This document shows, in pieces, positions 6,336 to 59,500 of a stretch of DNA of 64,000 bases (its first letter is position 1; each line of letters starts with the position of its first letter). A model generated the notes under the pieces. The model ran no database searches. It saw nothing but the letters and a program-made list of their open reading frames with translations, and was not told the DNA's origin. Source of the stretch: Beroe forskalii (lineage: Eukaryota > Ctenophora > Nuda > Beroida > Beroidae); the NCBI GenBank assembly GCA_011033025.1, contig WFMF01000037.1, forward strand, positions 496,001 through 560,000. Reading direction: 5' to 3'. Made by a program: the position numbers and the translations under genes.

Positions 6336-9300
6336 TCATCGATATAATCGAGCCATCTGTAACTGCAAGTCCATCTTCTCCGCTGCCAATCGTGTCATTT
6401 CGTCTTTGTGGGCTTGCTTTGAATACTCCAACTGGTTCTCCAAGGCCTTGACCTTCAACTTGAGCGCCGTCTCGTAGGGTACCTCGTGCTCGTATTCACT
6501 GAGATGAGAGTTGGGCGAGGGAAGGGGCTCTAGTTTGGTAACTGCCAGAGGCTTGCTGAGGTCAGGAGGTGCCATTATTGACAGTGTGTCGTTGAATGTA
6601 ACGCGTTTTGTGGAGGGCTGAGAATCGTCCAGTAGTCCTTCCAGGCGTTCTATGACTTTTTCTTGATTCTGACAGGTCTTTTCAAGCACACGCGTTGTTT
6701 TCAACTGAAATAATATCAAATGCGTAAATCTGGCTTGTTCTTTGCAGGAAAATCAAACCAGCTCGAAATAACTAAGGTGTGGCAGTATCTACGTGATTGG
6801 ATGAGAATGTGCACTTACCTTTTCCTGTAATTTGAGGAGAAGTTGGTTCTGGGACTGGTGAGCACTGCGTAGCTCCGATATCTCATCCTTCTCGGACTCT
6901 ATGCGAGTCAATCTGTCCTTCAACGAAGAAACCGTCTCAGTGATGACTCGGTTCTTTTCCATCTGAAAGCGCGATGTGTTTCAAATGTATTTTAGGAGGT
7001 GTGTTTATAAAGGTTGTAATTATGTGGATTTTTCGGGGAAAAAAAATTTACCCACCATGACAGTTCAAAATGGCGTCATTATCATAATATGTTAACTAGA
7101 ATAATGACTTGAGAAAGATCCCCAAATTTCAACCTACCAAATTTGTAAACACCAAAATTTTACTCTACATAAATACACCTCATGTCCGCTGGGAACCGGA
7201 CACGAGGTTGGGGGACACGCGGTCGGTGGACACTAGGTCGGCGACGGAAACCAGGGCACTGGACGTTAGGTCGGCAAATCCCCACAAGGTGGACACGAGG
7301 TCGGCAGCAGCTAATTACTTCATATCAATTTTCAATTATTTCCGTGTGTTTTTCTCGTCGAAGCGGAATACCATTAGTGCGCGCGTTTTTCGCCGGAAGC
7401 TATATTTCCCAACTTTTCAACCCAGTTTAGCGTGGCGCCAAACGAGGACATCGACCCTCCTATTTTTGTCACCGATAGTTAGCCACATTTTTAGCAAATT
7501 CACCATGGAAGGTACCAATGATTAACGAGGAAATTGACGGTAGAACGCTATTTTAAGACTAGGAAATGAAATATCAACATTTTTAGGCACTGAATGCTTC
7601 CAGTTCATTGATGCTTCAAATTCAATAAATACGCAAAATTCTTAAGTAGTGAAACGAACTACATTATTTCAAAAATTCTGATTATCTTCTTCTTTAATAG
7701 AGCTTCTGCTACATCTGTTACATCGGCTACATCTGTGGCACTATTTGAATAACTTCTTTCTTTATTGAATGCAGATTTATTGGCATTCATTGAGTCCTCC
7801 AAATTGAAAACCACAGAAAGCTTACGACGCTGGTCTGCAATGCCCCAAGTGCGCACATTGTGTATGAAACAATGTCCACAGACAGGAAGGCTACTAAAGA
7901 ACATCCAACCAGAGCACCCAACTTACTAACTCCTTCAATAATTACAGTTGATAGTGCTTTGATGGATGGTTCAAAGGCTTCCATCATGTAAAACCATAGA
8001 GTTAGGTTCAGATAGGCATATGCAGCTTTGCCAATACCCATGAGGACTTCTGATGAAATCAAAACCTCTTGTGCTCCTAGCACTGATAGCAAGAGGAAAC
8101 TAACTGAACTGACGAATGAGGAAAACACCAAGGATGTAGGAAGTGAGACAAAAAATTGGGCAATGTAAGCCACTGCCTTGGCGACAAATGGAGCCAGACC
8201 AGATAAAAGTGCCATCTTTATGAACTGCCCCCCAAAGACGTTGCTGCAATTGGGCGAATTGCTGTCAACTTGTACATTGTAGTTGTTGTAGACCTTAGGG
8301 ACAAAGAGAATAAGGCCCCATCCCTGAGCAATGTTAACAAAGTGAACAAGGGAGAGTTGGGCTATGAGAAAAATGACTGCTGTGTTTGGTCTACTTGAGT
8401 TCCTCGGAGAGTAATCCTCGTCTGGAACTGAAGTTGAATAACTCACGGTAGTCTCAGCTGATTGTGTTAGTCTACATCTTTCCGTCATATTTGCCTGCTC
8501 TTTTTTCAGGCTGAGATATACATCTGTTTCATTCAAATAAAATATGAAACAGATTAACGGCCCTATGAAGATAGGCGTGGAGCAAAGTACAAAGAAGATC
8601 CTCCAGCCCAGGGTTGGAAGTGTCCAGTAAGCCAAAAGGGCCATGTAGCCTGCACCAGCACTATAACTAAGTGACACCATGGCGATCCCTAGGTTTTTCA
8701 TCTTCTTTGACGGACTTACTTCAGCCCAGTAAACATATGTCATTGCACAGTTAGATCCCACTAGAATGCCAGTAAAAGCTCGGCTTACCAGCAACAGGTA
8801 GAATTCATGGGACAGGGCAGTCAGGACGGATACTAGGAAAGCTAAACTTATGGATATTATGATGGTTTTCTTCCTTCCAATCCTGTTAGCAAGCCATCCA
8901 GAGGTGAAGGAACCTGCAGCATAAAATGAATAAAATACAACATTCAGGATACCCTGTTTTGCTTCAGTGAGTTGCAGATCACAACCTATCTCCTGTGTCA
9001 AGACAGATGGGAGGTATACCTCCACTGCGTCTCCGAAGTTAATCAGGCAAACACAGAGCAGAGCGACCTTTACTTTCAGGTCATTGGCAGCCTCCGAACT
9101 GAGCTCTGACCCTGTAGGTGGCGGTACAAGTATTTGTTCAGTATCTGACTCCCTGCCAGGCTCTCCTGATTCCATGATCCTATCAACGGATGAATTTAAC
9201 CACTTTAAGTAATTGATAACCACTTGAAGTAGGTACTGATAACCTTACAATGTGCTATAATAAATCATAACTATAATTTGATATGATACAAAAATCAAGA

Positions 9301-18208: not shown

Positions 18209-19045
18209 GTCTTTTCCGTGCCTCTCTATATCTTAGCCAATTTAATCCTATTCCACCCATTTCTATTATTTTCATATTTCAGCACCGTTTATCTATTCCA
18301 TTTATCATTATTTCCTATTCTTTTTCCAGTTCCATTCTAAAATAGACAGTAACTAGACCGTTCCTTTTTCCCTTCCGACTATCACTATCTTAGGGCCGTA
18401 ACTCTTTAAAAAAAAAAATTGAGCCGCGCACTAAGTTTGCTTTCGAAATTCAATGACATTGTTTATATAGGAGCAAATTGATCACACGTGTATGACATTT
18501 AACTTACCAGTGTTTATTACTCGTGTTCTTTTCCGTGCCTCTCTATATCTTAGCCAATTTAATCCTATTCCACCCATTTTCTATTATTTTCATATTTCAG
18601 CACCGTTTATCTATTCCATTTATCATTATTTCCTATTCTTTTTCCAGTTCCATTCTAAAATAGACAGTAACTAGACCGTTCCTTTTTCCCCTCCGACTAT
18701 CACTATCTTAGGGCCGTAACTCTTTAAAAAAAAATTGAGCCGCGCATTAAGTTTGCTTTCGAAATTCAATGACATTGTTTATATAGGAGCAAATTGATCA
18801 CACGTGTATGACATTTAACTTACCAGTGTTTATTACTCGTGTTCTTTTCCGTGCCTCTCTATATCTTAGCCAATTTAATCCTATTCCACCCATTTTCTAT
18901 TATTTTCATATTTCAGCACCGTTTATCTATTCCATTTATCATTATTTCCTATTCTTTTTCCAGTTCCATTCTAAAATAGACACTAACTAGACCGTTCCTT
19001 TTTCCCCTCCGACTATCACTATCTTAGGGCCGTAACTCTTAAAAA
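18209..19045. repeat. Tandem triplication, 316-bp unit
   Basis: Units beginning with cttttccgtgcctctctata start near 18210, 18526 and 18842; the first two are full-length and the third is partial. The copies are nearly identical apart from the A-run and a few bases, so the amplification is recent. The 60-codon ORF in two copies is a repeat translation without recognisable features. Confidence 0.95.
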
Positions 19046-20279
19046 AACAACTCACCCTCTCAAAAAATTACCCCTTACTAACGGACTTCTTTATTAACCT
19101 TTTAATTTATTTCCTTGTGTTTAAATCAAACGCTGTTTCTGTTGCTTGTTTGAGACGAATTTCGTTTTGGTCACACATATAGAAGATCAAAGACAAGCCT
19201 TGGAAAATAGCTGATGGATTTAAATCCCGAAAGACCACTAAGGAAAAGCAAATAGGAAAAGGATGAGTGTTTTTAACGCATTTTTTACCTCTTACTTTCT
19301 TATCTTATTCTTTTTCTTTTAATATTTTTCATATCCACTTAGTACTCACTTACTGTGGGGGGTTGCCGTCCTGGCTAGGACGGAAGTAATCAATTTTCCC
19401 CTAGTACAGAATAATCAATTTTGGGAAGGGTTAGCAGAGATTGAGTTTTATCGAGTATGTGCCCTGCGGCTTACGCCATGCACGCAATAATCTAAATAAT
19501 CTCCAACTACAGCGCTAGATATTTTATGTTATTTTACCACTTTCAAAACTACTGTGTACAATCAAATTCAGACGACAAGTACAACGAATCAACTACTTCC
19601 TGCTTTCTTGTTAACATACCAGTTTTCTACTTCATTAAGAGTATCCACTTTATTGCCACTAGGTGCCGAAGTATCATTTGTTGACTAGTTTTGTCTATCT
19701 TCTTTAATAATAATCTATTAATTAGATTTTCATGACGGGAGCATTAATTCACACTAGTTCTTCTAACTTATTAGGAATAAGGTAATAGACGGAAAAGTAT
19801 TCATTACATCAGACAGTAATCGTTTATTCACTCATTTTTCTTGTCCGAACTACCAAAGCTATTCTTATGCGTAAGACTCAGGGTAGTTAATTTCTTTTAA
19901 TCCAGTACAATACTCTCGTAAGGGGCATATAAGCGCATGTTACTATCTGTTGCTTTTTATAATCAGTCATAATTCTTTAGCCTCAAGTTTACTGCATCGA
20001 CGCAACACTATTTCTCATGGCTCGCTACGTTTAAAGTATCTTTTACTTAAATCATCACCATTTTCTTATGGCAATTTTTATCTTTACCTTAAGAATACTC
20101 TTCGCGATGGGCACATTGTTGCAGTACTTCTTTTCGGCAGGCTAATTTTAATTATCTCTTTAACATTCTTCCACTCTAATGATTATGGGTGTACGGGTTG
20201 ATTTGTAGGGAACTGGTAGGGTATTTTACCTCGAATAGCTCTGTCATTCATAATACTGCTTATGATGGAGATATATGCA
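19046..20279. other. Intergenic, no gene seen
   Basis: AT-rich, no long frame of coding character. A small hairpin, ccgtcctggctaggacgg, lies near 19367. Confidence 0.5.
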
Positions 20280-21995
20280 GGTGTAGTAATCCAAGGAATA
20301 ATTGCCAAAAATTGTCCAAACCTGGAACTGGTGAAGGGCGGTCTGATTTGTTCTTCAGTGTGTTGCCCGGGGTGTCTTGTAGCGCGGGGGGGGGGTTCGC
20401 TGCCCGAATCGATGGGGGGGGGCCCGGGGGATCGGTTTTTTTGATGGGCCGTAGCCGGGTTGTATGGGGGGTGCCTGTCTCGGTCCGGGGGGGTCGTGGG
20501 GGCTTCATTTTTGGCTTGAGGTGGGCGCGGTGGGCGTGTTTGTATGCAGCTTGTTGACGGGCGTGTGCTCTGGAGTGCTCGGGGGCTGAGCTGTGGGCCG
20601 GAGACTGATTTTGGGGCGCCCGCGGGGCCCGGTTTGGCCGGAGTTGCTATCTCGGCCCGGGGGGGTCGTGGGGGCTTCATGTTTGGCTTAGGGTGTGCGC
20701 GGTGGGCGTGTTTGTGTGCGGCTTGTTGGCGGGCATATGCTCTGTGGTCCTCGGGGGCTGGGCTGTGGGCCGGGGACTGTATTTCGGGGCGCCCGCGGGG
20801 CCCGGTTTGGCCGGAGTGTCTGTCTCGGCCCGGGGGGGTCGTGGGGACTTCGCTTTTAGCTTGAAGTGTGTGCGGTGGACATGTTTATGTGCGGCTTGTC
20901 GGCGGACGTATGCTCTGGAGTGCTCGGGGGCTGGGTTGTGGGCCGGGGACTGATTTTTGGGCGCCCGTGAGGCCCGGTTTGGTCGGGATGTCTGTCTTGG
21001 CCCGGGGGGGTCGTGGGGGCTTCGTTTTTGGCTTGAGGTGTGCGCGGTGGACGTGTTTGTGTACGGCTTGCGAGCGGGCATATGCTCTGAAGTGCTCGGC
21101 AACTGAGTTATGGGACAAAAGCTGAATTCAAAATTTGGCCTCCCCTCTGCCTCAAAAATTAGTTTTTGGCCCATAGCTCGGTTCCTGAGTGCTTTGGAGC
21201 GTGTGTTTGTTGCGGGTTGTGTATGAGCGGGTCCATTGCGCGCATTTTGAGCCGGAAGTGGAGTCTCTGCGGCCTTCCTGGGCCGGGATGGACGTTTGCG
21301 CCGAATTGGGTCTTGCTGGTGCCTGGGGGTCGGTTTTTGGCTCATAGCTCGGTTCCTGAGTGCTTTGGGGTATGCGTTTGTTGGCGGGTCGTATGTGGGC
21401 GTGTCCGTTGCGCACGTTTTGGGCTGGGGGTGGGGTCTCTGCGGCCTTCCTGGGCCGGGATGGGCATTTTGGTCGGGTTGGGCCTCGCGGGTGCCTCGGG
21501 GTGCGGTTTTTGGCCCGTAGCTCAGTTCCTGGGGGCTTTGGAGTGTATGTTTGTTGACGGGTCGTGTATGGGCGTGTCCATTGCGCGCATTTTGGGCTGA
21601 GCATGGGGTCTCTGCGGCCTTCCTGGGCCGGGGTGGTGATTTTGGTCGGGTTGGGCCTTGTGGGTGCCTCGGGATCGGTTTTTGGCCCGTGGCTCGGTTC
21701 CTGAGTGCTTTGGAGTGTATGTTTGTTGGCGGGTTGTGTGTGGGCGTGTCCGTTGTGCTCGTTTTGAGCTGAGGGTGGGGTCTCTGCGGCCTTCCTGGGC
21801 CGGGGTGGGCGTTTTCTGTGTGGCTCGGCTGCGGCTCATCGGGGAATCGGTTTTTTGGGCCTCCCCCTGTCGATTTGGGCGGCGGGCTTTTTTCCTGTGT
21901 TGCGGGGCGCCTTGGGTGGCGTATTGGAGGGTAGGTTGGATTGCCCTTCACCAGTTCCAGGTCTTACCCAAAATGCCTTGGATTATAGCCTTTTT
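20280..21995. mobile_element. A-to-G hypermutated foldback element 1
   Basis: The outer ends pair: aatccaagg near 20290 with ccttggatt near 21984, and ctggaactggtgaagggc near 20321 with gcccttcaccagttccag near 21944. Between about 20338 and 21941 the plus strand is extremely G-rich, in about 170-bp tandem sub-units in each arm. The element is homologous to 38921-40073. Left end gggtgtcttgtagcgcgggg (20370-20389) corresponds to aggtgtcttgtaacacagga there, and right end cctgtgttgcggggcgcctt (21894-21913) to cctgtgttacaagacacctt. Differences are almost all A to G on the plus strand in both arms. The centre (about 21112-21172) keeps its adenines. The many frames on both strands across this block are compositional artefacts. 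Confidence 0.9.
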
Positions 21996-22049
21996 CCCGA
22001 CTAGTTTTGCCAATTTATCTTCAACTAGCATTGCTTTTTAATCTGTACC

Positions 22050-22430
22050 GTTACTCCTCATGATGGGCGCAATGGCGCAGTTTTTCATTGATTAACTATA
22101 CTGGGAATTTATAGGGCATCTTCATGATGGGCGCAATGGCGCAGTATTTCATCGGGCATTTATAGGGCATCCTCATGATGGGCGCAATGGCGCAGTATTT
22201 CATTGATTAACTATATTGGGCATTTATAGGGCATCCTCATGATGGGCGCAATGGCGCATCATTTCATTGGGCATTTATAGGGCATCCTCATGATGGGCGC
22301 AATGGCGCAGTATTTCATCGGGCATTTATAGGGCATCCTCATGATGGGCGCAATGGCGCAGTATTTCATTGGGCATTTATAGGGCATCCTCATGATGGGC
22401 GCAATGGCGCAGTATTTCATTGATTAAGGG
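22050..22430. repeat. 51-bp tandem array, left block
   Basis: Seven or so copies of a unit containing catcctcatgatgggcgcaa, then tggcgcagtatttcatt and gggcatttataggg; some copies carry an extra gattaactatatt. It directly abuts hypermutated hairpin 2 on its left; a matching block lies on its right. Confidence 0.9.
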
Positions 22431-23115
22431 GGCCGGGGGGGGTCTGAGGTCGATTTTCGGTTTTTTGTTGTTTCTGATGGAGCTGAGCGCCGGCTGCCAG
22501 TGGGTTTTTGCCGCATCGGGGGGTATTGTTCCTGGCCGGGGTTGTAGATTTTTCGGGTCGTGGTTTCGCCTGTGATTGCAGTGCGCGCGCGAACTTGCGA
22601 CGCGGTTTGCCGGGGATGGGCTTTGGAATCTGTCTCCTCCTGCAGTTTTTGGGGGGAGCCCTTGGGGCTTGGTGGTTGTGTTCTGGGGCGTGGAGCGGGG
22701 CTTTCATGCGGGCCGATTTTTGATTTGGGCCTCAGAGGTGAAAATGTGAATTTTTGAAATTTGAAAATCGTCATTTTTGACCATTTTTGGGACAGGAGCC
22801 AACTTTGAAAATTCATATTTTCACTTCTGGGGCCTGGGTCGGGGGTCGGCTCGCGTGGGGGTTTTGTTTTGTGCCCTGGAGCATGACTGCCGGGTTTCGG
22901 GGGTTTTCCTCGAGGGCTGTGGGGGGGGATGGGTTTTGGGGTTGGTTTGCGGCGGATCGCGTCGTGGGTTTGCGCGCGCGCTGTGATTGCGGGCGGGGTC
23001 GCGGTTTGGGGGGTTTGTGGCTTCGGCTGGGGGCAGTATTTTTTTGGTGCGGTAGGGGCCTACTGGTGGCAATGGCGCAGTATTCTGTTGGGGCGGGAGG
23101 CCGGGGGTCGACCTG
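22431..23115. mobile_element. A-to-G hypermutated foldback element 2
   Basis: The two arms (about 22450-22740 and 22825-23110) are inverted repeats once A/G and T/C differences are allowed. For example the left arm reads gggccgatttttgatttggg at 22710-22729. The reverse complement of the right arm at 22833-22852 reads gagccgacccccgacccagg. All ten differences are explained by A-to-G on the plus strand, in the left arm at two sites and in the right arm at eight. The apical segment 22741-22830 stays A-rich and unaltered. No coding sequence. Confidence 0.9.
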
Positions 23116-23590
23116 ATGGGCCCAATGGCCCAGTATTTATATTGGGCATTTATAGGGCATCCTCATGATGGGCGCAATGGCGCATCATTTCATTGGGCAT
23201 TTATAGGACATCCTCATGATGGGCGCAATGGCGCAGTATTTCATTGGGCATTTATATATATAGGGCATCCTCATGATGGGCGCAATGGCGCAGTATTTCA
23301 TTGGGCATTTATAGGGCATCCTCATGATGGGCGCAATGGCGCAGTATTTCATTGGGCATTTATAGGGCATCCTCATGATGGGCGCAATGGCGCAGTATTT
23401 CATTGGGCATTTATAGGGCATCCTCATGATGGGCGCAATGGCGCAGTATTTCATTGGGCATTTATATATATAGGGCATCCTCATGATGGGCGCAATGGCG
23501 CAGTATTTCATTGATTAACTATATTGGGCATTTATAGGGCATCCTCATGATGGGCGCAATGGCGCAGTATTTTTGATTGACTATATTGGG
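23116..23590. repeat. 51-bp tandem array, right block
   Basis: Same unit and same orientation as 22050-22430, about nine copies, some with an extra atatata insertion. The 51-bp unit (17 codons) leaves frames open on both strands, producing spurious proteins. Confidence 0.9.
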
Positions 23591-24899
23591 CATTTATAGC
23601 GTTTTTTTTTCAGCATCTTCATGATAATGATTTGCAGGGGTTGCATTGGCGTGATATTCTAAACATCGGCAAGCTTTACCTTCTTATCTCTTTCAATCGA
23701 CTAGCTAAGTCAAATTGGTAGTATTTTCCAATTAATTCAGAAGATTATTCGGGAAACACTTAAGAATTATATAACAACACGACAGAACACTATACTGGTA
23801 GTCTCCCCATGGATGTGCCTGAACATGAATGACGAATGGGCACCCATAGTAGCTTGAGAAAATATGCTACGGTCGGTCTTGGAATGAAACAAAAACAACG
23901 AAGGACCAGATTGATTCTCGTAGACATCACAGAAGCATTGACCTCAGTTGACAATTGAAGCCTCGAAGAAGAGAAATCGCACTGACTGCTAAGACTACCA
24001 GTTTCAACGAGTATACCAAAAAGAAATTAAGGAAATACAGTGAAAAAAAAACAAACAAAAAAAAACAAACAAACACACAAATCAAAAACACAAACACAGC
24101 TTTGGTCATCTGCTACTGATTTGAGCTTTTGCATGCCGTTCTTCCTACTTTATAGATACGTCAATTACCTATTTCTTCTAGAATTCTCATAATACCCTAG
24201 TTTTCTCATAAGTCCACGGCCCATCTTGAAATAGATAGAAGTAGTGGAGGTTTATTTAGATTATGTCTTGGACTTATGGCTTTTTTTTTATAATTAGTGC
24301 ACTGTCGTGAAAAACATCCTCATTATTAAATGTTGCCGTCCTTACTCTCAGCATGATCATCACTATCACTTAATGAATGCCTTATTATGTTGGTTTTTCT
24401 AGCATTGGTATGTTAACAGCTTCCTCTTTGACCAGGAACCCTTTCTCTTGTTCCAGCTTCATCGTAATCAGAGACTGTCTGCCAGCTCTAGAGAGTGTGG
24501 CGACTCTCCAGGTAAGTGGTACTCCTTTCCGCATTGGATAACTCTCCTAAAATTCAACACAATGGGCGCAAAGACGCAAGAAAAGGGAAGGGGAAAGGAT
24601 GCAATTGGTGAAATTTTTGCTGACTGGAGAAATACATTTAGATGTAAAGGGCGCTAAGATGCTAACTGGATTGTTTTAAAACATACTTATAAACCAGCAA
24701 ACTCACTTCAATAGATACCTAAGTTATAAAAAAAGTTCAATTGAGGAAATAAAGGGGGAAATAAATTGGGAAACAAAAGGGGGTACATAAATTGTCCGAC
24801 GTCATCTGACCCCCTCGCGGGGATCAGACAACATCTGGCAATACAAAGGAGAGTATTCCATAACTAAGCCCATTGCCAAACTATCCCAATTTAAGAACG
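23591..24899. other. Gene-poor region; one possible isolated exon
   Basis: Mostly AT-rich with an (aaac)n-type A-rich run at 24042-24095. Near 24435-24511 a stretch runs from an AG to an intron-donor-like gtaagt on the plus strand and stays open (reading EPFLLFQLHRNQRLSASSRE), so it could be an isolated exon. I do not recognise it and saw no partner exons. Confidence 0.3.
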
Positions 24900-25292
24900 G
24901 GATTTACTCGGCTTTGTCCCAATTGTCTCAAATGTCCCATTTTTCCCAGTCCGCATTCACTTTTTTGAGTCCCATTTGTTCCATTTTCTCTGTCTATTTG
25001 TCCCAATTGTCCCATTTGTCCCAATTGTACCAGTCCACATTCATTTTTTTAGAATCTCATTTGTTCCATTTTCTCTGTTCCATTTGTCCCAATTGTCCCA
25101 TTTCCCATTTGTCCCAAATGTCCCAATTGTCCCAGTCCGCATTCACTCTTCTGAGTCCAATTTGTTCTATTTCCTCTGTCCCATTTGTCCCAATTGTCCC
25201 ATTTGTCCCAAATGTCCCATTTGTCCCAATTGTCCCTGTCCCAATCCACTTTTTCTTGAGTTTGGGACAATTGGGACAGTGAAACCCCCCCC
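24900..25292. repeat. tgtcccaa minisatellite related to 38.3-38.6 kb
   Basis: Irregular array of the words tttgtcccaattgtccca and tcccatttgttccattt, ending in gagtttgggacaattgggac. The same ending closes the TIR element at 37909-38582, so this is probably a related element fragment. Confidence 0.8.
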
Positions 25293-26359: not shown

Positions 26360-29300
26360 TGTTAAATTCCGCCTAATTTGAATGAATCCTGCCAATTTAT
26401 CGTGCCTGCCAGGTGATCTAATTAAGGCAGGATTGTTCGCAGTATAATTCACCGATTTGGCAGGATTTGATTGTAATTATTTATCCACTAATCCTGCCAA
26501 ATTGGCTCAAAGCATGCCCTCAACAACGCGATGTCCAGTAATTTCGCAGGATTCTCTGCTAAATTTGGACGTCTTCATCTGAAGCATGATTTGATTAGTA
26601 GTAACTACATTATAGCTGTTTCCAAACCTTAATTGGCAGGATTTGACTCTAACTATCTACCTAAGCCTTCGTATTAACAAGCAAATTTATTCAGTAATTT
26701 GGCAGTATAAACATCTCTATCGGCTGAAATCTCTCCTAGATTCGCAGGTTTTTCTGTTTTTGAGTTTTCTCAAACTCTGGTAAGGAAATATAGGACAATA
26801 GGAATAATGTAAAGAAAAATTAGAATATTTGTCATTTAGGTATATCCGTCACTGTAGCTATTCTATTGTGGGAACTAACCCCGGCTTTTACTCTAAAAAC
26901 GACAAAAATCTGCCAAGACACTTCCAAGAACCGGCAAAAATTCGTCAAAAAGGCAGTAAGCCATCAAAAACTACTCAAAAACCGGCAGAAAATCCCAAAA
27001 TGACAGAAGTTGCCAGTTTATAAGAAAACACTAAGAGTGTGTATTGAAAACTTGACTCGACTTGACTCGACTTGACTCGACTTGACTCGACTTGACTCGA
27101 CTTGACTCGACTTGACTCGACTTGACTCGACTTGACTCGACTTGACTCGACTTGACTCGACTTGACTCGACTTGACTCGACTTGACTCGACTTGACTCGA
27201 CTTGACTCGACTTGACTCGACTTGACTCGACTTGACTCGACTTGACTCGACTTGGATCGACAGCTTGACTCGACTTGACTCAACGACTTGACTCGACTTG
27301 ACTTGACTCGACTTGACTCGACTTGACTCGACTTGACTCGACTTGACTCGACTTGACTCGACTTGACTCGACTTGACTCGACTTGAGTCTTGACTTGACT
27401 CGACTTGACTCGACTTGACTCGACTTGACTCGACTTGACTCGACTTGACTCGACTTGACTCGACTTGACTCGACTTGACTCGACTTGACTCGACTTGACT
27501 CGACTTGACTCGACTTGACTCGACTTGACTCGACTTGACTCGACTTGACTCGACTTGACTCGACTTGACTCGACTTGACTCGACTTGACTCGACGACTTG
27601 ACTCGACGACTTGACTCGACGACTTGACTCGACTTGAATCGACTTGACTCGACTTGACTCGACTCGACGACTTGACTCGACTTGACTCGACTTGACTCGA
27701 CTCGACTCGACGACTCGACGACTCGACTTGACTCGACTTGACTCGACTTGACTCGACTCGACTTGACTCGACTTGACTCGACTTGACTCGACTTGACTGA
27801 CTCGACTTGACTCGACTTGACTCGACTTGACTCGACTTGACTCGACTTGACTCGACAGCTCGACTTGACTCGACTTGACTCGACTTGACTCGACTTGACT
27901 CGACTTGACGACTCGACTTGACTCGACTCGACTTGACTCGACTTGACGGCTCGACTTGACTCTGACTTGACTCGACTTGACTCGACTTGACTCGACTTGA
28001 CTCGACTTGACTCGACTTGACTCGACTTGACTCGACTTGACTCGACTTGACTCGACTTGACTCGACTTGACTCGACTTGACTCGACTTGACTCGACTTGA
28101 CTCGACTTGACTCGACGACTCGACTTGACTCGACTTGACTCGACTTGACTCGACTTGACTCGACTTGACTCGACTTGACTCGACTTGACTCGACTTGACT
28201 CGACTTGACTCGATTTGACTCGACTTGACTCGACTTGACTCGACTTGACTCGACTTGACTCGACTTGACTCGACTTGACTCGACTTGACTCGACTTGACT
28301 CGACTTGACTCGACTTGACTCGACTTGACTCGACTTGACTCGACTTTACTCGACTTGACTCGACTTGACTCGAATTGACTCGACTTGACTCGACTTGACT
28401 CGACTCGACTCAACTTGTCTCCACGAACACTACCTATTTAAAGGGTTATTAATAAGTAGGTATCGAGGAAGTCATGTCACATTTGGTCATAATATATTTG
28501 ACGATTTCAACTATGATTGTTGAAGGGCCATTCCATGTTGTCTGACCGATTCTTCACCAAGGTGAGGTTTGAACATCTAATCAGTAATTCAGTAATCGTT
28601 ACACAATGTTTCATTGTGCGTCCAATACACGTAACTTTTGAATGTTCAACAATCCACACTTTCATTGCAATGCACAGAGTAGCCCTGTAACCCTCCAATA
28701 ATTACCATGAGGTTTAGCATGAAATTTGTTAGCCGTTGCCAGAGCCCAGACCCTCCTGACAATCGGCACTTCACAGCTGGCGGCAGTGGGTCAATGGGTC
28801 ATACATCGTACGGCAACATAAAGCGACAAACAACTTCCTAAACTGAACTGGAAGCGGAAGCGGAAGTCGGAACTGCATAATTGTTTTGCTGATGGTGATC
28901 TCATAGTATGTGTTAAATGTGATTCATTAATCAAATTAACAAGCTGTCTGCTGTCTTGTTGTTGTAAAAAGAGTGCAGGCGTGATAACCATATCATTAGT
29001 TCTCATGAGAGGGTTTAGTTGCGTGTGTTGAAACAAGTGTTTCGTTTAAGCCGCTTGCAGTTTCTCGTTCAGAACCTTTTTAGTGCAAAATCCACAGACC
29101 ATCACCATCCCTTTCGGAATGCGATGGCAACCCTCGAAGTGGAGCGTTCTGCTGGAACCCACCCGGGTGCACTTCGTGAGGAGGACCTTGTTAGGATTTA
29201 AAAACATGATTGTATGATTATCAGCTCGATGAGTACCTTATACCTACCTACTGACCTGCTTTCAGAGGAGCGTTAAGCCCGTGTAGGTATTATAGCATAC

Positions 29301-31392: not shown

Positions 31393-32010
31393 TTAGTTAA
31401 ATTTGAAATTTTTTAGTAAAAAATTGCCCAAAATTCGGCCCCCACAATAATTTTCATCTTCCGCCATGGCTGCTTTACATATACATTTATTGATCTGATC
31501 ATTCCAAAGGAGGGAATCTGAGATGAGAATCCCCAAATCTTTTTCCTGATCAGATACTTCTATACTATTGCCATTTAATTTATAATCATTCTTTGGATTG
31601 TTATTGTAATTCAGGTGCATAACCTTACATTTGGTTTCATTAAAACTTAATAACCACAACTTTTCCCACCTTTCTAATTGACACAAGTCTTCATTAATTG
31701 TCCTAGCACTGTTTGCTTTTGCAATCAATTTCAAGTCATCAGCAAATAATTTAACTGCATTAATAATGTTATCAGGCAAATCATTTATAAATAATATAAA
31801 CAATAATGGCCCCCAATACTGACCCTTGTGGTACCCCAGACAAAACTTTTTTGATTGTTGAATACTTTCCATTGACAAATACTCTCATACTTCTATCATT
31901 GAGAAAACTCCTTAAAAGCTCTAACAGCTTGCCTTTAATACCAAGATTTTCTAATTTACTCAATAGCACATCAACACTGTTTTCATGAAAACTATCTTCA
32001 AACTTCCACT
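31393..32010 (-). pseudogene. Non-LTR retrotransposon reverse transcriptase fragment
   Basis: Two overlapping minus-strand frames together carry the core of a LINE reverse transcriptase. One (31781-32010) has LLSKLENLGIKGKLLELLRS and GVPQGSVLG; the other (31393-31878) has GPLLFILFINDLP, the catalytic-type box KLFADDLKLIA (FADD), then WLLSFNETKCKVMHL and EKDLGILI. The break falls inside the VPQGSVLG/PLLF motif, so a frameshift separates the halves. Upstream endonuclease and RT fingers are absent. The motif set is of the CR1/Jockey type. It is a dead, truncated copy. Confidence 0.85.
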
Positions 32011-37908: not shown

Positions 37909-38582
37909 AGGGGGAGTGTCACTGTCCAAATTTACTTTTCTGAGTTTGGGACTGGTTTTTCGGAAAATTGGGAAAACTAAGACATTAAGGACAAAAAAAA
38001 CAGACATTTATTTTTTCAACATTAATCCAAGTTTTTCTATCATCGAAATGAAAGTTATATTCATACTACAATACATATTTTGGTTGTGTTTGTTTGCATT
38101 GGTTATCTGTTCCCACTTCTCTATCCCAAAACCTATGATGGGAAAACACAGTGGCAGTTGCAACGCAGCAAGTGCCTTCGGAAGCGTGATAAGCGCTGTT
38201 AATTTCCCTGTTTCAAGACTCTGGCAATACTCTCTGGCAATAATCATTAATCAAGCAATGTAACAGGCTGTAAAACAAAAACACTAAACTGCCGCTCAAA
38301 AACACAATCATTTGAGCCCCAGTTGTCTCCGTCACTTTTGTTCAAATGTCACATTTGTCCCAAATGTTCCATGATTTGTCCCAAATTTCCCTATCCCAAT
38401 TCACGTTTAGAGACCCATTAATCTCTGTCTCCTTTGTCCCAATTATCTCAATTTTCCCAGTCCCAATTTTCCTAATTTTTGAGTCCCATTTGTATCATTT
38501 TCACTGTCCCATTTGTCCCAAATGTCCCTGTCCCAACCCACTTTTTCTCGAGTTTGGGACAATTGGGACAGTGACACCCCCA
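37909..38582. mobile_element. TIR element with tgtccca array
   Basis: Ends gggggagtgtcactgtccaa (about 37910-37929) and ttgggacagtgacaccccc (about 38563-38581) are inverted. The right third is an array of tttgtcccaa and tgtcccaattttcc words. The frames inside have no recognisable product. Confidence 0.7.
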
Positions 38583-38920
38583 GTAAAAGAATAAGGTATC
38601 TAAAACATACCTCATATACTGAATCCGGGATGGACGGATCTCGTTCCAATCCACATTGTCGCACTAGAAAGCTCTTTCAGACCCAGACTATTTACACTGG
38701 GTGGCTGGTATCAGTCCTCGCCAGTCCTACTTGTCCACCAAGAGTATTGTGGATAATATCTGAAAATGTTTATAGTTTAATGAAAAGAATCTGATCTTAA
38801 AAACTTAAAAACACTACTTCATACAATCAATTAAAGTATTTATGTATTGAAAACGGAGTAGATTTCTGAAAATATTCCCGGTGTCAGTTTATTAAAATAT
38901 AATTTGTTTGATTTATTGAA

Positions 38921-40073
38921 AGGTGTCTTGTAACACAGGAAAAAAGTTCGCTGCCCAAGTCGATACTTTTAGGTAAAAATGGCAATATATAAGTTATATG
39001 AAAATGCCTATCTCATTCCAGGAATTATTACAGACTTCATTTTAGCTTAAAATGATACAATGGACATGTTTATACACGGCACCTTGTTAACAAACATATC
39101 TCTGATCAAACTTTCAGGAACATATGGGCAAAATTTTTTGACAAACACCCCAAGGCCCAATTGACAAAATTATATCTCGGCCCAGGAAGGTCGTAGGAAT
39201 ACGTTTAGTTGTTTGTGCATAATGGACATGTTTAAACGATTTCAAATCCCAACTCTACGTTACTCAGGGAACTGAGTTATGGGCCAAAACTGATTTTAGG
39301 CACCCCTTGACATCAAGCCAAAATGACTTCTCGGCCCAGAATTATGAGACTTCGTTTTTAGTTTTTGATAAAATGTATATAATGGACATTTTTTATACGA
39401 CCTAACATTAACAAACATATTTCTAAATCCACTCAGGAACTGAGTTGTGGGACAAAAACTGAATTCGAAATTTGGACTCCCCTCTGCCTCAAAAAAATCA
39501 GTTTTGGCTCATAACTCGGTTCCTGAGTACTTTAGAGCATATGCACGGCAAATATAAACAAGTCCATCACTCCCACAGCAGAGGACATTAAAATGGATGG
39601 AACGAAATTCTGGGCCGAGATAGACGTTTAGCCAAATTGAATTTCGTGCCTAAAATCAGTTTTTTGGCTCATAACTCGGTTCCATATATTTTTTAAAAAC
39701 ATACGTTTGTTGACAAGTCGTACATAAACATGTCCATTGCGCACATTTTAAGCTCCTAAAAAATCAAATTTCTACGACCACCTGGGCACTAAGATAGACA
39801 TTTTGGTCAAACCAATAAATTTGCTATGGTGCCTCGAAAATCAGTTTTTGGCCCATCTTTTCAGTTTGATAGTTTTTATATTTGTTTGTTAACTTAAAAT
39901 TTATAAACATGTCCATTGTGCTCATTTAAGCTAAAATGAAGTCTCAAATATTATACGACCTTCCTGGAGTTGGATCCATTTTTATACAACAGGTTTAGAG
40001 CTCATCAAAAATCGTTTTTTCTTACCTCCCCTATCGACGAACACGAACTTTTTCCTGTGTTACAAGACACCTT
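38921..40073. mobile_element. AT-rich foldback element, unmutated relative of 20.3-22 kb
   Basis: Near-perfect 30-bp terminal inverted repeats: aggtgtcttgtaacacagga plus aaaaagttcg at 38921-38950, and their complement at 40044-40073. The interior repeats a phrase around gaactgagttatgggccaaa in the left half and its complement-like form ggctcataactcggttcc in the right half, meeting at about 39465-39500. Homology to the G-rich element continues right of the TIR to ccttggattatgag (about 40133-40146). Because its two ends are still complementary, this copy shows the ancestral state. Confidence 0.85.
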
Positions 40074-40606
40074 GAGCAAAACATATTGAGAATAAATTGT
40101 CGACAGCGACCAGTTGAGGACATACCCAAAATGCCTTGGATTATGAGTGCGAGGCGAAGCGAATCAGCCGAGTTCCATAAATGATTTCTGCGGTGAGTTT
40201 GAGCCTAAACTCAAGTACTAAAATGGCAATATATAAGATGAATGCTCCTTTACACATTATTGTATAACTCAGCTGTTTTTTAAATTTGAGCATAATATCA
40301 TTATGAATATGAGCAATCTTGATCAAACTTTCAGAACATAACGGCAAAATATGACAAATATGATCCTGGAGCAGCTAACATAATATTAGGATTTCAGAAG
40401 CGGAGGAAAAGCCGGTTGTTTGTGCATAACTTTTGAAGCAAAAACTGGGAAATCCAAATACAGAATGACGTCACGACAGGTCAACAGAACAATTCTTCCC
40501 TCATGACTCCCAACCCCTAACAGAAGATCCTGTCTTCGCACGAAAACAACACTTCATACTCCAGAAGCTGCAATCTACCTAACATTCTGACCGAAACAAA
40601 AAGAGT

Positions 40607-53535: not shown

Positions 53536-56500
53536 ATGGTTTCCAAGAACAAGCAAGCATTTGTGCAACAGGGCCCCAAGCCTGAAGGTATTGGCTCTCT
53601 TATTCCAACTGTCTGCCTTGCTGTCATCTTTGCTCTTGTTGCTTCATGGTTTCAGATGAGGATTGTAGAGTTAGAAAAGGGTGTTAATAACCAGAGAATT
53701 GCCCAGACAATCCAGGTTAGTTAGGTTACCTTCTACCTATAGAAGCTATAATAATGATTGTATTTTATGTGTAATTTGTGCTTTCATAAATAAAAGAAGT
53801 CCAGGTATTTTTTGATATTTTCGAAGTAGAGTGATGGTTCTACAACACTAGATTTAGTGCAATTCCACAACTCCTCCAGGCACTGTCTGAAGAGCTGGCC
53901 TCAGTTAACATGAAGGTTGTGGAAATGGAAGCTGTGCTCGCAGACAGGGAAAAGATGAGAGGACCAGCAGGACCACCCGGACCTAAAGGAGACAATGGTT
54001 CACAAGGTCAATTTAAACTTTTAAACAAATCTATAGTCATAAACTGCTATTTGATATCTAGTCTATGTAAATACATACGTGGCAGATGTGAAAAAAAATT
54101 TGATTTATCAAATTTTTGCACAATTTGTCGGACTTATTGATAATGATTGATGATCAATGTGATCAAATTTGAAAGACTAGCCAACAGAAATTTTCCTAAA
54201 ATCCCCGGGATCTTGTTGTAAATGATAATAACCAAATACAGCAAGTTAAACCCTTCGTTTTATCAGGACCTGCTGGTGCACAAGGCCTGCAAGGGCCAGT
54301 TGGACCTGCTGGAGAGACAGGACCTCAAGGACCACAGGTGATTCAAATTAGTCCCTTAATTGATCATGCTCATTTTCGACGGCGTTTGATTTCCATTTCA
54401 AATTTACAGAACCTACTCGCTATATAAGGATAGTTTGGGTAGTTTTGTCTTTGACAATAAAATTAACCATCTGAATTCTAGGGAGAAGCTGGACCACAGG
54501 GAGTTGCCGGAGAGACAGGTCCTCAAGGTGCCGAAGGGCCTGCAGGACCGCAGGGAGAGCAAGGTTTGACTGGGGCCCAAGGCCTGCCTGGTGAGAGAGG
54601 AGAGAATGGTGTTACTGGCCCCCAAGGAGAACAGGGACCTGCCGGAGAACAAGGCCCACAAGGAGTACAAGGACCTGCAGGAGAAGCTGGTGCAGCTGGA
54701 GAGAAGGGGGCACCAGGTCCTAAGGGCGATACTGGAGATGACGGGGCTAGAGGTCCACAGGGCGCTCAGGGTCCTCAGGGTATGTCTTCAGTCTTACTAA
54801 TCCCCGCCCATATAGCGCTATATTCTAATATGAGTATAACCCTGCTCTACCATCTCAAAGCTTGCTATAAAATCATAAAACGTCATATTTTCATTGAGCC
54901 TTTGAGCTAACTCACAGTCCGAGGCGTGAACGTTTTCTCATCCCATTTCTCTGCAGGAGAACAGGGCGAGAGGGGAAGTCCTGGAATGCAGGGACCTGAG
55001 GGAGCTCAAGGAGAACGGGGCGAGAGAGGCCGTGGAGAACCTGGTGAACAGGTTACTGACCCATCAATGGTGCTGAGCATGTTTCTTGATTTTACTACTT
55101 GATTTTCTGTGTTTTAATTGATCTATATGTGATTCTTGAAAAATTGTTGATTTTCTGTGGGTTGATTAAGCGTGGGTTTTCGTTCTGAATGTTCATACAT
55201 TTTTGGGAAAATACTAATATAACATTTTATCTCCTAATAAAAATAACTTCACAGCGTGATTTTGGTGTTACATAATCGTAGTCTAATACTACCATCACTG
55301 CTGTGATTTATCCTTGAAAGCCCAATCATGATGAAAACTACCTAGTGGTATTACACAAGCCTTTTGAAATTTTTCTAAAGCCTCTCCTGTTACCCCCTTC
55401 CAACTACCCTTTTTATGCCCTGATAATCTTCTTCTTGATACCCATGCTAACCCCTGCTTTTTACCCTTACAGTAATAATCACTCCCTTGTCTTCACTTGT
55501 TACTCCTCCCTTGTTACCCCTCTCTTGTTCCCCTCAGGGTGCGCCTGGTTGTAACCCCTCCCTTGTTTCCCCTCAGGGTGCCCCTAGTTGTAACCCCTCC
55601 CTTGTTTCCCTCTGGGTGCCCCTGGTTGTAACCCCTCCCTTGTTTCCCTCAGGGTGCCCCTGGTTGTAACCCCTCCCTTGTTTCCCTCAGGGTGCCCCTG
55701 GTTGTAACCCCTCCCTTGTTCCCCTCAGGGTGCCCCTGGTTGTAACCCCTCCCTTGTTCTCCTCAGGGTGCCCCTGGTGTAAGTCCCACACTGACCACTG
55801 AGTGCACGGAGTACACTTCCACTGGTCCCCTCAGTGCCCCTGGTTGTAACCCCTGTCCTCCTCAGGGTGCCCCTGGTTGTAACCCTCCTTGTGTGAGTAC
55901 CCCACACGCATTAGTCAGGGTGCCCCTGGTTGTAACCCCTTGTTTCCCTCAGGGTGCCCCTGGTTGTAACCCCACCCTTACCACCTCAGGGTGCCCCTGG
56001 TTGTAACCCCCTCCCTTGTTTCCCACACTAGGGTGCGCCTGGTTGTAACCCTCCATTAGTAGTACCACACTACCACACGCATTAGTAGTACCACACCACT
56101 TCCATTAGTAGTACCACACTACCACGCATTAGTAGTACCTGTTCCCTCACACGCATTAGTAGTACCACACTACCACAGGGTGCCCCCTGGTTGTAACCCC
56201 TCCATTGTAGTACCTCAGGGTGCCCGCATTAGTACCACTTGTTTTCCACACGCATTAGTAGTACCACTCTTGTTCCCCTCCACACGCATTAGTAGTACCA
56301 CACACTTGTTCCCCTCACGCATTAGTAGTAACCCTCCCCACACTACCACCCATTGGTTAGTAACCCCCCCTTGTTCCCCCACACCCATTAGTAGTACCAC
56401 ACTACCACACGCATTAGTAGTACCACACTGTTCCCCTCAGGGGTGCATTGGTTGTACACCCACGCATTAGTAGTACCACACTACCACACGGCTAGTACCA

Positions 56501-59500
56501 CACTACCACACGCTCAGGGTGTACCACCCTGGTTGTTCCCCAGGGTGCACACGCATTAGTAGTACCACACTTCCTCAGGGTACCACTACCACACGCATTA
56601 GTGTACCACACTACCACACGCATTAGTAGTACCACACTACCACACGCATTAGTAGTACCACACGTGCATTAGTACCACACTACCACACTTGTTCCCCACA
56701 GGGTGCCCATGGTAGTACACTACCACACACGCATTAGTAGTACCACACTACCACACGCATTAGTAGTACCACACTACCACACGCATTAGGGTGCCCACAC
56801 CTTGTACTACCACACGCATTAGTAGTACCACGCTACCACACGCATTAGTAACCCACCACGCATTAGTAGTACACTTACACTACCACACGCATTAGTAGTA
56901 CCACACTACCACACGCATTAGTAGTACCACACTAGTACCACACTACCACACGCATTAGTAGTACCACACTACCACACGCATTAGTAGTACCACACTACCA
57001 CACGCATTAGTAGTACCACACTACCACACGCATTAGTACCACACTACCACACGCATTAGTACCACACTACCACACGCATTAGTAGTACCACACTACCACA
57101 CGCATTAGTAGTACCACACTACCACACGCATTAGTAGTACCACACTACCACACGCATTAGTAGTACCACACTACCACACGCATTAGTAGTACCACACTAC
57201 CACACGCATTAGTAGTACCACACTACCACACGCATTAGTAGTACCACACTACCACACGCATTAGTAGTACCACACGCATTAGTAGTACCACACTACCACA
57301 CGCATTAGTAGTACCACACTACCACACGCATTAGTAGTACCACACTACCACACGCATTAGTAGTACCACACTACCACACGCATTAGTAGTACCACACTAC
57401 CACACGCATTAGTAGTACCACACTACCACACGCATTAGTAGTACCACTACCACACGCATTAGTAGTACCACACTACCACACGCATTAGTAGTACCACACG
57501 CATTAGTACTACCACACGCATTAGTAGTACCACACTACCACACGCATTAGTAGTACCACACTACCACACGCATTAGTAGTACCACACTACCACACACATT
57601 AGTAGTACCACACTACCACACGCATTAGTAGTACCACACTACCACACGCATTAGTAGTACCACACTACCACACGCATTAGTAGTACCACACGCATTAGTA
57701 GTACCACACTACCACACGCATTAGTAGTACCACACTACCACACGCATTAGTACCACACTACCACACGCATTAGTAGTACCACACTACCACACGCATTAGT
57801 AGTACCACACTACCACACGCATTAGTAGTACCACACTACCACACGCATTAGTAGTACCACACTACCACACGCATTAGTAGTACCACACTACCACACCACC
57901 ACACGCATTAGTACCACACTACCACACGCATTAGTAGTACCACACTACCACACGCATTAGTAGTACCACACTACCACACGCATTAGTACCACACTACCAC
58001 ACGCATTAGTAGTACCACACTACCACACGCATTAGTAGTACCACACTACCACACGCATTAGTAGTACCACACTACCACACGCATTAGTAGTACCACACTA
58101 CCACACGCATTAGTAGTACCACACTACCACACGCATTAGTAGTACCACACTACCACACGCATTAGTAGTACCACACTACCACACGCATTAGTAGTACCAC
58201 ACTACCACACGCATTAGTAGTACCACACTACCACACGCATTAGTACCACACTACCACACGCATTAGTAGTACCACACTACCACACGCATTAGTAGTACCA
58301 CACTACCACACGCATTAGTAGTACCACACTACCACACGCATTAGTAGTACCACACTACCACACGCATTAGTAGTACCACACTACCACACGCATTAGTAGT
58401 ACCACACTACCACACGCATTAGTACCACACTACCACACGCATTAGTAGTACCACACTACCACACTACCACACGCATTAGTAGTACCACACGCATTAGTAG
58501 TACCACACTACCACACGCATTAGTAGTACCACACTACCACACGCATTAGTAGTACCACACTACCACACGCATTAGTAGTACCACACTACCACACGCATTA
58601 GTACCACACTACCACACGCATTAGTAGTACCACACTACCACACGCATTAGTACCACACTACCACACGCATTAGTAGTACCACACTACCACACGCATTAGT
58701 AGTACCACACTACCACACGCATTAGTAGTACCACACTACCACACGCATTAGTAGTACCACACTACCACACGCATTAGTACCACACCCATCAGTTACGGTG
58801 TTGCAGTAACTTTCCAGCGCACGCTTACAGAGTAACACTTTATTGTGTGCATGAATAACTAATAACTATGTCTATTGCCTACTCAGTGCTCACTTATTTC
58901 AGGAGGGACAGTTATAGGTACCACACACATTACACTATAATAGTCTCACGCACATTTAACATAGCTCCTCTGCGAATTACATCCCTTGATATCTAGCGTC
59001 TCTCACATACACTTTATAGACATGCTAAATGAAAAACCCATCTATTACATGAGCTCTATTTGATAAATCTGACACCGCATCAATGTTATATCTTCTCTAC
59101 ATCAGCATTATATAAAATAGATCTTTGCTAATTCACATGCCAATTTATCATCCGTCTTCTTTGTATCCTAATGTAATTTATAGCCCCAAGATGAATATTA
59201 TTCACAGGCATCCCCAAACCACAGCTTCATATAACCTACGTGTTACAAATATGCAGAACACGTTCGACTATTATATTACTTTAGCGAAAGCCATTCATAA
59301 CATATCTATGGTGGCTCAGGTGCGCCAACATGATATTTCGCAATATTTTTCAAAATCAAAATAAATTTCCGTCAAAATGAATCTTGAATAAAATTATTTT
59401 TTGAATGAGTTTGAGTTTCAATAAGTTTGAAATTAAAAAAAAGGAAAATATTCCTTGGCGCATATAACGCCCCGCGTTATTCGCGCCAGTTGGTTTTCAA

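What the first reader, a model, noticed from the sequence alone, without database searches (positions are those of the whole stretch)
20338..21941. Foldback element with wholesale A-to-G change on one DNA strand
Seen: compared with the AT-rich relative at 38921-40073, plus-strand adenines have become guanines in both arms. gacaagtcgtacataaacat (39712-39731) corresponds to gacgggtcgtgtatgggcgt (21556-21575): seven A-to-G and one C-to-T. Left TIR aggtgtcttgtaacacagga becomes gggtgtcttgtagcgcgggg, and right TIR cctgtgttacaagacacctt becomes cctgtgttgcggggcgcctt. Direction is fixed because the AT-rich copy still has complementary ends while the G-rich copy's ends no longer pair. Known: dsRNA adenosine deaminases (ADAR) edit A to I, read as G; C-deaminase and RIP hypermutation give C-to-T or G-to-A, the wrong class. 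Inference: either an ADAR-edited hairpin RNA was copied back into the genome, or an adenine deaminase acted on a DNA foldback or RNA-DNA hybrid during mobility.
Basis: partly seen in the sequence, partly recalled or inferred. Interest (0 to 1): 0.97.

Follow-up and report, generated by a model that had tools for sequence, protein, structure and literature searches.

The report
RNA-edited hairpins written into genome
Hairpin sequences carried inside a self-copying poly(A)-tailed repeat have had most of their adenines turned into guanines on the RNA-like strand, which is best explained by the cell's RNA-editing enzyme altering the repeat's RNA before that RNA was copied back into the animal's DNA.

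Summary
E1 (20287-21985) and an unreported second foldback, E2 (22428-23114), are near-perfect hairpins whose arm mismatches are almost all G•T: 360 G•T against 5 A•C, and 140 against 2. So A became G on the + strand in both arms. Against the consensus of 25 unedited E2 relatives, this E2 shows 137 A>G among 157 differences.

Both sit inside a larger repeat R (about 18210-24915), a retroposon with poly(A) tails; two copies show 9- and 11-bp target-site duplications. Of 31 E2 copies read base by base, 5 are hyper-edited and lie inside R copies; the other 26 showed no R around them, one lying just beyond an R poly(A) tail. In all 6 edited hairpins the edited strand is R's sense strand. R outside the hairpins is unedited. 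Edits avoid helix ends and loops and partly follow ADAR neighbour preferences. The genome encodes a plausible ADAR.

Best reading: ADAR edited R's hairpin-bearing RNA, which was then reverse-transcribed into new genomic copies. Precedents are ADAR-type changes in avian retroviruses; my paper searches listed no such genomic retroposons.

The parts
18210..24915 (+). Retroposon R: copy of a poly(A)-tailed, apparently non-coding retroposon with E1 and E2 nested in it. The window copy lacks the last ~30 bp and the poly(A) tail that other copies have.
   Evidence: 5' 316-bp tandem units 18210-19047; related copies across the genome, lists capped; 3' ends with poly(A) in L072-L074; TSD CATAATCAA at C359 and GTTCACGTGGA at C179
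20287..21985 (+). E1: foldback element with edited arms, nested in R. R sequence without the insertion is present in L042, L043 and L081; a 3-bp duplication TAG flanks E1.
   Evidence: hairpin counts; R continuous across the insertion point in L042; uninterrupted site in L043 and L081
20340..21942 (+). Edited arms of E1; 351 of 458 scoreable arm adenines are now G
20320..20339 (+). Outer 20-bp arm end of E1 (left), unedited; its partner is 21943-21962
   Evidence: 100% complementary inverted repeat
21943..21962 (+). Outer 20-bp arm end of E1 (right), unedited
21100..21180 (+). Central loop region of E1, little edited
   Evidence: 10/23 and 3/11 edited in the two central 60-base bins against 63-92% in the other 25 bins
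22428..23114 (+). E2: second edited foldback (TTAA-flanked, piggyBac-like non-autonomous element), nested in the minisatellite of R; its right end is damaged
   Evidence: 140 G•T against 2 A•C of 325 pairs; 137 of 157 differences from the unedited consensus are A>G
22735..22830 (+). Central part of E2, almost unedited
   Evidence: 2/16 and 0/12 edited in the two central bins
38920..40145 (+). AT-rich, old, truncated relative of E1; not edited
   Evidence: 36 G•T against 53 A•C; sequence

Best explanation
R is a retroposon transcribed into a polyadenylated RNA. Foldback DNA transposons (E1, E2) inserted into DNA copies of R, so R transcripts from those copies carry hairpins of about 340-820 bp. 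An ADAR edited most adenines in the double-stranded arms of the RNA to inosine, sparing loops, helix ends and the rest of R. Target-primed reverse transcription then read inosine as G and wrote the edited sequence into a new genomic copy. Shown: one-strand A-to-G in hairpins only; always R's sense strand; R has poly(A) tails and TSDs; among the copies read, only R-nested ones are hyper-edited; partly ADAR-like context; an ADAR gene is present. Inferred: that ADAR is the enzyme, that RNA was the edited molecule, and that reverse transcription fixed it.
For: 1) Substitution class and strand: E1 360 G•T to 5 A•C; the five edited E2 copies have 113-149 mismatches of the biased kind to 1-9 of the opposite kind. 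Against the consensus, A>G (or T>C when the other strand is edited) makes up 107-143 of 148-180 differences; the other 20-51 are like the 12-59 total differences of the 25 unedited copies. 2) R dependence: the 5 edited E2 copies (window, L042, L043, L044, L047) lie in R; 26 other copies read base by base are not hyper-edited, and the flanks of the 25 tested do not match R. The 26th, L086, is a built-in control: it lies 15 bp beyond the poly(A) tail of an R copy and is not hyper-edited (17 G•T, 5 A•C). Fisher exact for 5/5 against 0/26 is 6e-6. 3) Strand: the edited strand is R-sense in all 6 hairpins, although relative to E2's own loop it is + in 3 copies and - in 2. 4) R bears poly(A) tails of 14-29 A, and two copies show TSDs; the R copies holding edited L042, L043 and L047 end in poly(A) (for L042 about 900 bp between the locus and its end were not read). 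5) R outside hairpins: the window copy has 10 differences in 1306 bases (2 A>G) and 21 in 518 (1 A>G). 6) Edits avoid duplex ends: 3 of 83 adenines within 30 nt of the loop end against 74-83% beyond 60 nt; E1's outer 20 bp are unedited. 7) Context over 925 of 1183 edited arm adenines: 5' T .86, C .80, A .76, G .70; 3' T .61 against .80-.84, near the metazoan ADAR pattern in PMC9989829 (passages). 8) Copies edited independently: L043 and L047 share the insertion site and 18 other differences, but 44 of 159 arm sites differ in state. 9) ADAR: 801-aa frame with A_deamin, three dsRBD matches and HAE / PCG / C motifs.
Against: No RNA or read data were available, so neither editing of R RNA nor the raw reads were seen. 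Context preferences are softened: 5' A is not above 5' C, and in E1 alone the 5' effect is not significant (p=0.48). The window's R copy lacks its own poly(A) end, L043 shows no clear TSD, and only one side of L044 matches R. Shared edited sites exceed what trinucleotide context predicts (Mantel-Haenszel odds ratios 2.2-5.1), so independence of copies is not perfect. No unedited R copy with a nested E1 or E2 was found to serve as the source.
Confidence: 0.9

Rival explanations
1. An adenine deaminase (ADAR or other) acted directly on DNA, on a single-stranded foldback hairpin or an R-loop, without an RNA-copied intermediate.
For: Edits are confined to hairpins and one strand. Editing of DNA in DNA/RNA hybrids by ADARs is published (Zheng et al. 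2017, seen only as a citation in PMC12925331).
Against: The hairpin alone is not enough: 26 of 31 E2 copies read base by base, none of them shown to be in R, are not hyper-edited. The strand follows R, not E2. In an R-loop the hybrid holds the template strand, whose editing would read as T-to-C on R-sense, the opposite of what is seen (inference).
Confidence: 0.05
2. Sequencing or assembly artefact at hairpins (for example strand-specific base-calling errors).
For: Perfect inverted repeats are hard to sequence (recalled); the raw reads were not seen.
Against: 26 other E2 hairpins in the same assembly are unaffected. Affected ones share an R context and R strand. Context preference and sparing of helix ends are enzyme-like.
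Confidence: 0.03
3. Old divergence or a G-rich ancestral state with C-to-T decay.
For: A C-to-T change in one arm also makes a G•T pair.
Against: The unedited E2 relatives are 38-42% GC; 137 A>G against 5 C>T in the window's E2. A G-rich ancestor would need arms of about 80% GC (from the pair counts).
Confidence: 0.01

Closest known systems
ADAR-type A-to-G hypermutation of avian retroviruses (Rous-associated virus, avian leukosis virus; Hajjar and Linial 1995, Felder 1994, seen only through a passage of the review PMC12925331)
   Same: A-to-G clusters in reverse-transcribing elements; in an inverted repeat region nearly 50% of adenosines were changed to G (review passage).
   Different: Those are infectious retroviruses. 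Here it is an endogenous non-LTR-type retroposon carrying nested DNA transposons, with several separately edited copies in a genome assembly.
[quoted passage not shown]
   Same: Repeat-derived duplex as substrate; 5' G and, in most species, 3' U disfavoured; a ctenophore was among the species profiled.
   Different: Known at RNA level; here the edits are in DNA. The 5' preference here is weaker.
APOBEC editing of retrotransposon cDNA and RIP (recalled; APOBEC also in PMC2873906 passages)
   Same: One-strand, deamination-type hypermutation of mobile elements.
   Different: Those give C-to-T / G-to-A; this is A-to-G and is limited to duplex regions.

Membership tests
ADAR hyper-editing product | Clustered A-to-G on one strand, other classes at background | tested here: met
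ADAR hyper-editing product | Confined to long duplex; flanking unpaired sequence spared | tested here: met
ADAR hyper-editing product | 3' neighbour U disfavoured | tested here: met
   3' T .61 against .80-.84, p=1e-13; also in E1 and in E2 taken alone
ADAR hyper-editing product | 5' neighbour U and A favoured, G disfavoured | tested here: inconclusive
   5' T highest (.86) and G lowest (.70), p=2.6e-4 pooled, but A (.76) is below C (.80) and the effect is not significant in E1 alone (p=0.48)
ADAR hyper-editing product | ADAR with deaminase domain, dsRBD and active-site motifs in the genome | tested here: met
   the roles of the motifs are recalled
ADAR hyper-editing product | Editing seen in RNA of the organism | not testable with these tools
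   no RNA data
Non-LTR retroposon (R) | 3' poly(A) tail | tested here: met
   8 of 8 other R copies whose end was read have 14-29 A; absent in the window copy, whose end is lost
Non-LTR retroposon (R) | Target-site duplications of variable length | tested here: met
   CATAATCAA at C359; GTTCACGTGGA at C179; none clear at L043; other copies not checked
Non-LTR retroposon (R) | Own reverse transcriptase (autonomous element) | tested here: not met
   no ORF of 150 aa or more in the window copy outside the ORFs that overlap E1; other copies not tested; so R is filed as a non-autonomous retroposon
piggyBac-like foldback/MITE (E2) | TTAA target duplication and terminal inverted repeats | tested here: met
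   TTAA at both ends in most copies shown, altered or missing in some (for example L042, L049, L058)
piggyBac-like foldback/MITE (E2) | Related transposase | not tested
   -
APOBEC / RIP hypermutation | C-to-T or G-to-A excess | tested here: not met

The most novel reading that the evidence does not exclude
ADAR editing licenses copying: an unedited long hairpin in R's RNA blocks reverse transcription, and editing loosens it enough to be copied. If so, RNA editing is not only a by-product recorded in the genome but a gate for which nested retroposon RNAs can spread, and a heritable route by which RNA changes enter germline DNA. In its favour: 6 of 6 nested foldbacks identified inside R copies are edited and no unedited one was met (not every R copy was read); predicted folding falls from about -639 kcal/mol for the E2 consensus to -468 to -510 for the edited copies other than truncated L044, with inosine-U pairs expected to be weaker still (last point recalled).
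Probability: 0.3. Interest if true: 0.95.

Novelty: new variant of a known kind. Interest (0 to 1): 0.9.

Why it matters
If true, it is a direct genomic record of RNA editing being turned into DNA sequence: more than a hundred, in E1 more than 350, A-to-G changes entering an animal genome in single copying events. It makes the question of how often edited RNA is written back into the germline testable by computation, because any nested hairpin in a retroposon is a self-contained test (count G•T against A•C mismatches). The DNA also preserves ADAR footprints (context, helix-end exclusion) without any RNA sample, and such G-rich islands are a substitution source that dating and phylogeny methods would misread as great age.

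Tried and rejected
Considered and rejected: an unusual GC-rich transposon family (unedited E2 relatives are 38-42% GC); editing during the foldback's own DNA transposition (edited strand follows R, not E2); one edited master copied many times (39-44 of 159, or 28-29 of 125-127, arm sites are discordant between pairs of copies, though concordance is somewhat above what trinucleotide context predicts); edited stretches elsewhere in the fetched DNA (one search scanned 362,785 bases, overlapping loci counted more than once; the only extra A-poor stretches, in L052 and L006/L015, are minisatellite-like; L052 and L006 were checked and are not hairpins); extra-long gaps in five other R copies as further nested hairpins (L081-L085: minisatellite expansion or, in L082, a non-hairpin insert). 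A first hairpin script used too lenient an alignment and was discarded. A light A>G excess shared among the 25 not-hyper-edited E2 copies (29 shared sites against 10 T>C) showed no significant 5' T enrichment (p=0.44) and is left open.

Full report
What is there. The window is part of a 216-Mb genome (G000, contig C436). The best relative of a window-encoded transporter is from the ctenophore Bolinopsis microptera, at 51% identity, so the animal is probably a ctenophore; that is inference from one protein. At 20287-21985 lies a foldback element, E1. Setting its left arm against its right arm gives 816 opposed pairs: 54% Watson-Crick, 360 G•T, 5 A•C and 8 other (one search gives 837, 359, 8, 12). 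In a hairpin with both arms on one strand, A-to-G in either arm turns A•T into G•T, while G-to-A or T-to-C would give A•C. A C-to-T origin of the G•T pairs would need a ~80% GC ancestor, whereas unedited full-length relatives are about 41% GC. The AT-rich relative at 38920-40073 shows no such bias (36 to 53). A second hairpin, E2, at 22428-23114 shows the same thing: 140 G•T against 2 A•C of 325 pairs.

Families. E1 relatives (12 loci plus the window's AT-rich one; search lists are capped) show no large G•T excess, the most uneven being L006 with 40 to 24; the best full-length ones, L032 and L033, are 93-94% Watson-Crick. E1 copies are flanked by 3-bp duplications (TAG in the window, TTG in L032, TAA in L033; read). 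E2 is a roughly 715-bp hairpin flanked by TTAA, as in piggyBac-type elements (recalled). I read 31 E2 copies base by base (window, L042-L070, L086). Five are hyper-edited: window, L042, L043, L044 and L047. Against the consensus of 25 others the five show 137, 143, 131, 107 and 127 A>G (or T>C, when the other strand is edited) out of 157, 180, 170, 148 and 178 differences; the remaining 20 to 51 resemble the 12 to 59 total differences of unedited copies. Two more searches bring the copies seen to 56. Among the 25 not read, 21 match both strands along their length, as unedited hairpins do, and four are partial matches I could not judge (C366, C486, C552, C402).

The carrier. The flanks of the four other edited E2 copies match the same window sequence, about 18.2-24.2 kb, L043 and L047 on both sides, L042 well on one side and weakly on the other, L044 on one side only; none of the flanks of the 25 unedited copies tested does. 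In L042, R runs straight across the place where E1 sits in the window, so E1 is an insertion into R. R has 316-bp tandem units at its 5' end and a 51-bp minisatellite in the middle, and other copies end in 14-29 A. Two copies have clean target duplications: CATAATCAA (C359) and GTTCACGTGGA (C179). L042's R copy has a variant 3' end before its poly(A). No ORF of 150 aa or more was found in the window copy apart from ORFs that overlap E1, so R looks like a non-autonomous non-LTR retroposon. A reverse-transcriptase fragment lies elsewhere in the window at 31393-31878 (RVT_1), but I have no link between it and R.

Strand and dependence on R. In the orientation that ends in poly(A), the A-to-G strand is the sense strand in all six hairpins (E1, and E2 in five R copies), although R lies on the + strand in three loci and the - strand in two. 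Relative to E2's own loop, the edited strand is + in three copies and - in two. The nested insertions lie at several places in R; L043 and L047 share one. R sequence around the hairpins is not edited: in the window copy 10 of 1306 bases on one side and 21 of 518 on the other differ from the other copies, two and one of them A>G. L086 is a natural control: an E2 15 bp downstream of an R poly(A) tail, so outside the RNA, and not hyper-edited (17 G•T, 5 A•C).

Footprint of the enzyme. Over 1183 arm adenines, 925 are edited. By 5' neighbour: T .86, C .80, A .76, G .70 (p=2.6e-4). By 3' neighbour: A .84, C .84, G .80, T .61 (p=1e-13). PMC9989829 (passages read) reports that across metazoans ADARs favour 5' U and A, disfavour 5' G, and in most species disfavour 3' U. 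The fit is partial: 3' U and the order T highest, G lowest agree; 5' A is not above C, and in E1 alone the 5' effect is not significant (p=0.48). Near saturation such preferences soften, and a 5' A is often itself edited (inference). Editing is nearly absent near the loop end of the helix (3 of 83 adenines within 30 nt, 11 of 30 at 30-40 nt, 74-83% beyond 60 nt) and low near the outer end. E1's outer 20 bp and unpaired tips are untouched. L043 and L047, at the same R position and sharing 18 other differences, differ in state at 44 of 159 arm sites, so they were edited at least partly separately.

The enzyme. The genome has eight matches to the ADAR deaminase domain, five of them over 100 bits. 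One 801-aa frame carries the deaminase domain (1.8e-91), three dsRBD matches and the active-site motifs HAE, PCG and the second cysteine region (motif roles recalled). Ctenophores are reported to have ADAR2-like and ADAD-like genes and to lack ADAR1 (PMC4323055, passages).

Mechanism and rivals. The simplest account is: nested foldbacks in R RNA fold, ADAR edits the duplex, and target-primed reverse transcription writes G for inosine. Direct DNA deamination does not explain why only R-nested copies are hit or why the strand follows R; in an R-loop the hybridised strand would be the template, giving the opposite strand bias. An artefact does not explain the R dependence, strand rule, context and end effects. 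What is missing is RNA and reads.

What is known. The closest precedents are avian retroviruses with A-to-G clusters, including an inverted repeat region with nearly half of adenosines changed (review PMC12925331, passages). A large survey of traces looked for mismatch clusters and, in its high-quality human and Xenopus DNA traces, saw no A-to-G/T-to-C excess (PMC2873906, abstract and passages). Nine full-text searches listed no title or abstract reporting ADAR-hyper-edited endogenous retroposon copies; five papers were opened in part (PMC2873906, PMC9989829, PMC4323055, PMC4245799, PMC12925331), and most subscription papers and all preprints are outside that library.

Verdict. Real, well explained, and a new variant of a known kind: genomic copies of ADAR-edited retroposon RNA. 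The open and more daring point is that every nested foldback found inside R is edited, which would follow if editing is needed for such RNAs to be copied.

Noticed in passing
E2 copies L045, L046, L051, L055, L057, L060 and others: Not hyper-edited, yet sites shared by 3 or more of the 25 copies show 29 A>G against 10 T>C in loop-forward orientation; perhaps a lightly edited founder later spread by DNA transposition. The 5' T enrichment is not significant.
   Followed up: partly
window 55500-58800: Large minisatellite array (unit around 'taccacactaccacacgcattagtag') beside collagen-like exon sequence (by eye); its strong C and A skew comes with the repeat.
   Followed up: no
window 27030-28420: Tandem 'acttgactcg' array giving a long repetitive reading frame.
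   Followed up: no
window 24925-25280: Tandem 'TGTCCCAAT' array joined to the truncated 3' end of R; a similar motif appears near 38500.
   Followed up: no
L082 (C362): An R copy carrying a non-hairpin insert of about 1.3 kb; no A-to-G hypermutation was evident on reading it, as expected if a hairpin is needed.
   Followed up: partly
window 7787-9223 (-): MFS transporter frame of 478 aa, closest to ctenophore svop-1 (51%).
   Followed up: partly
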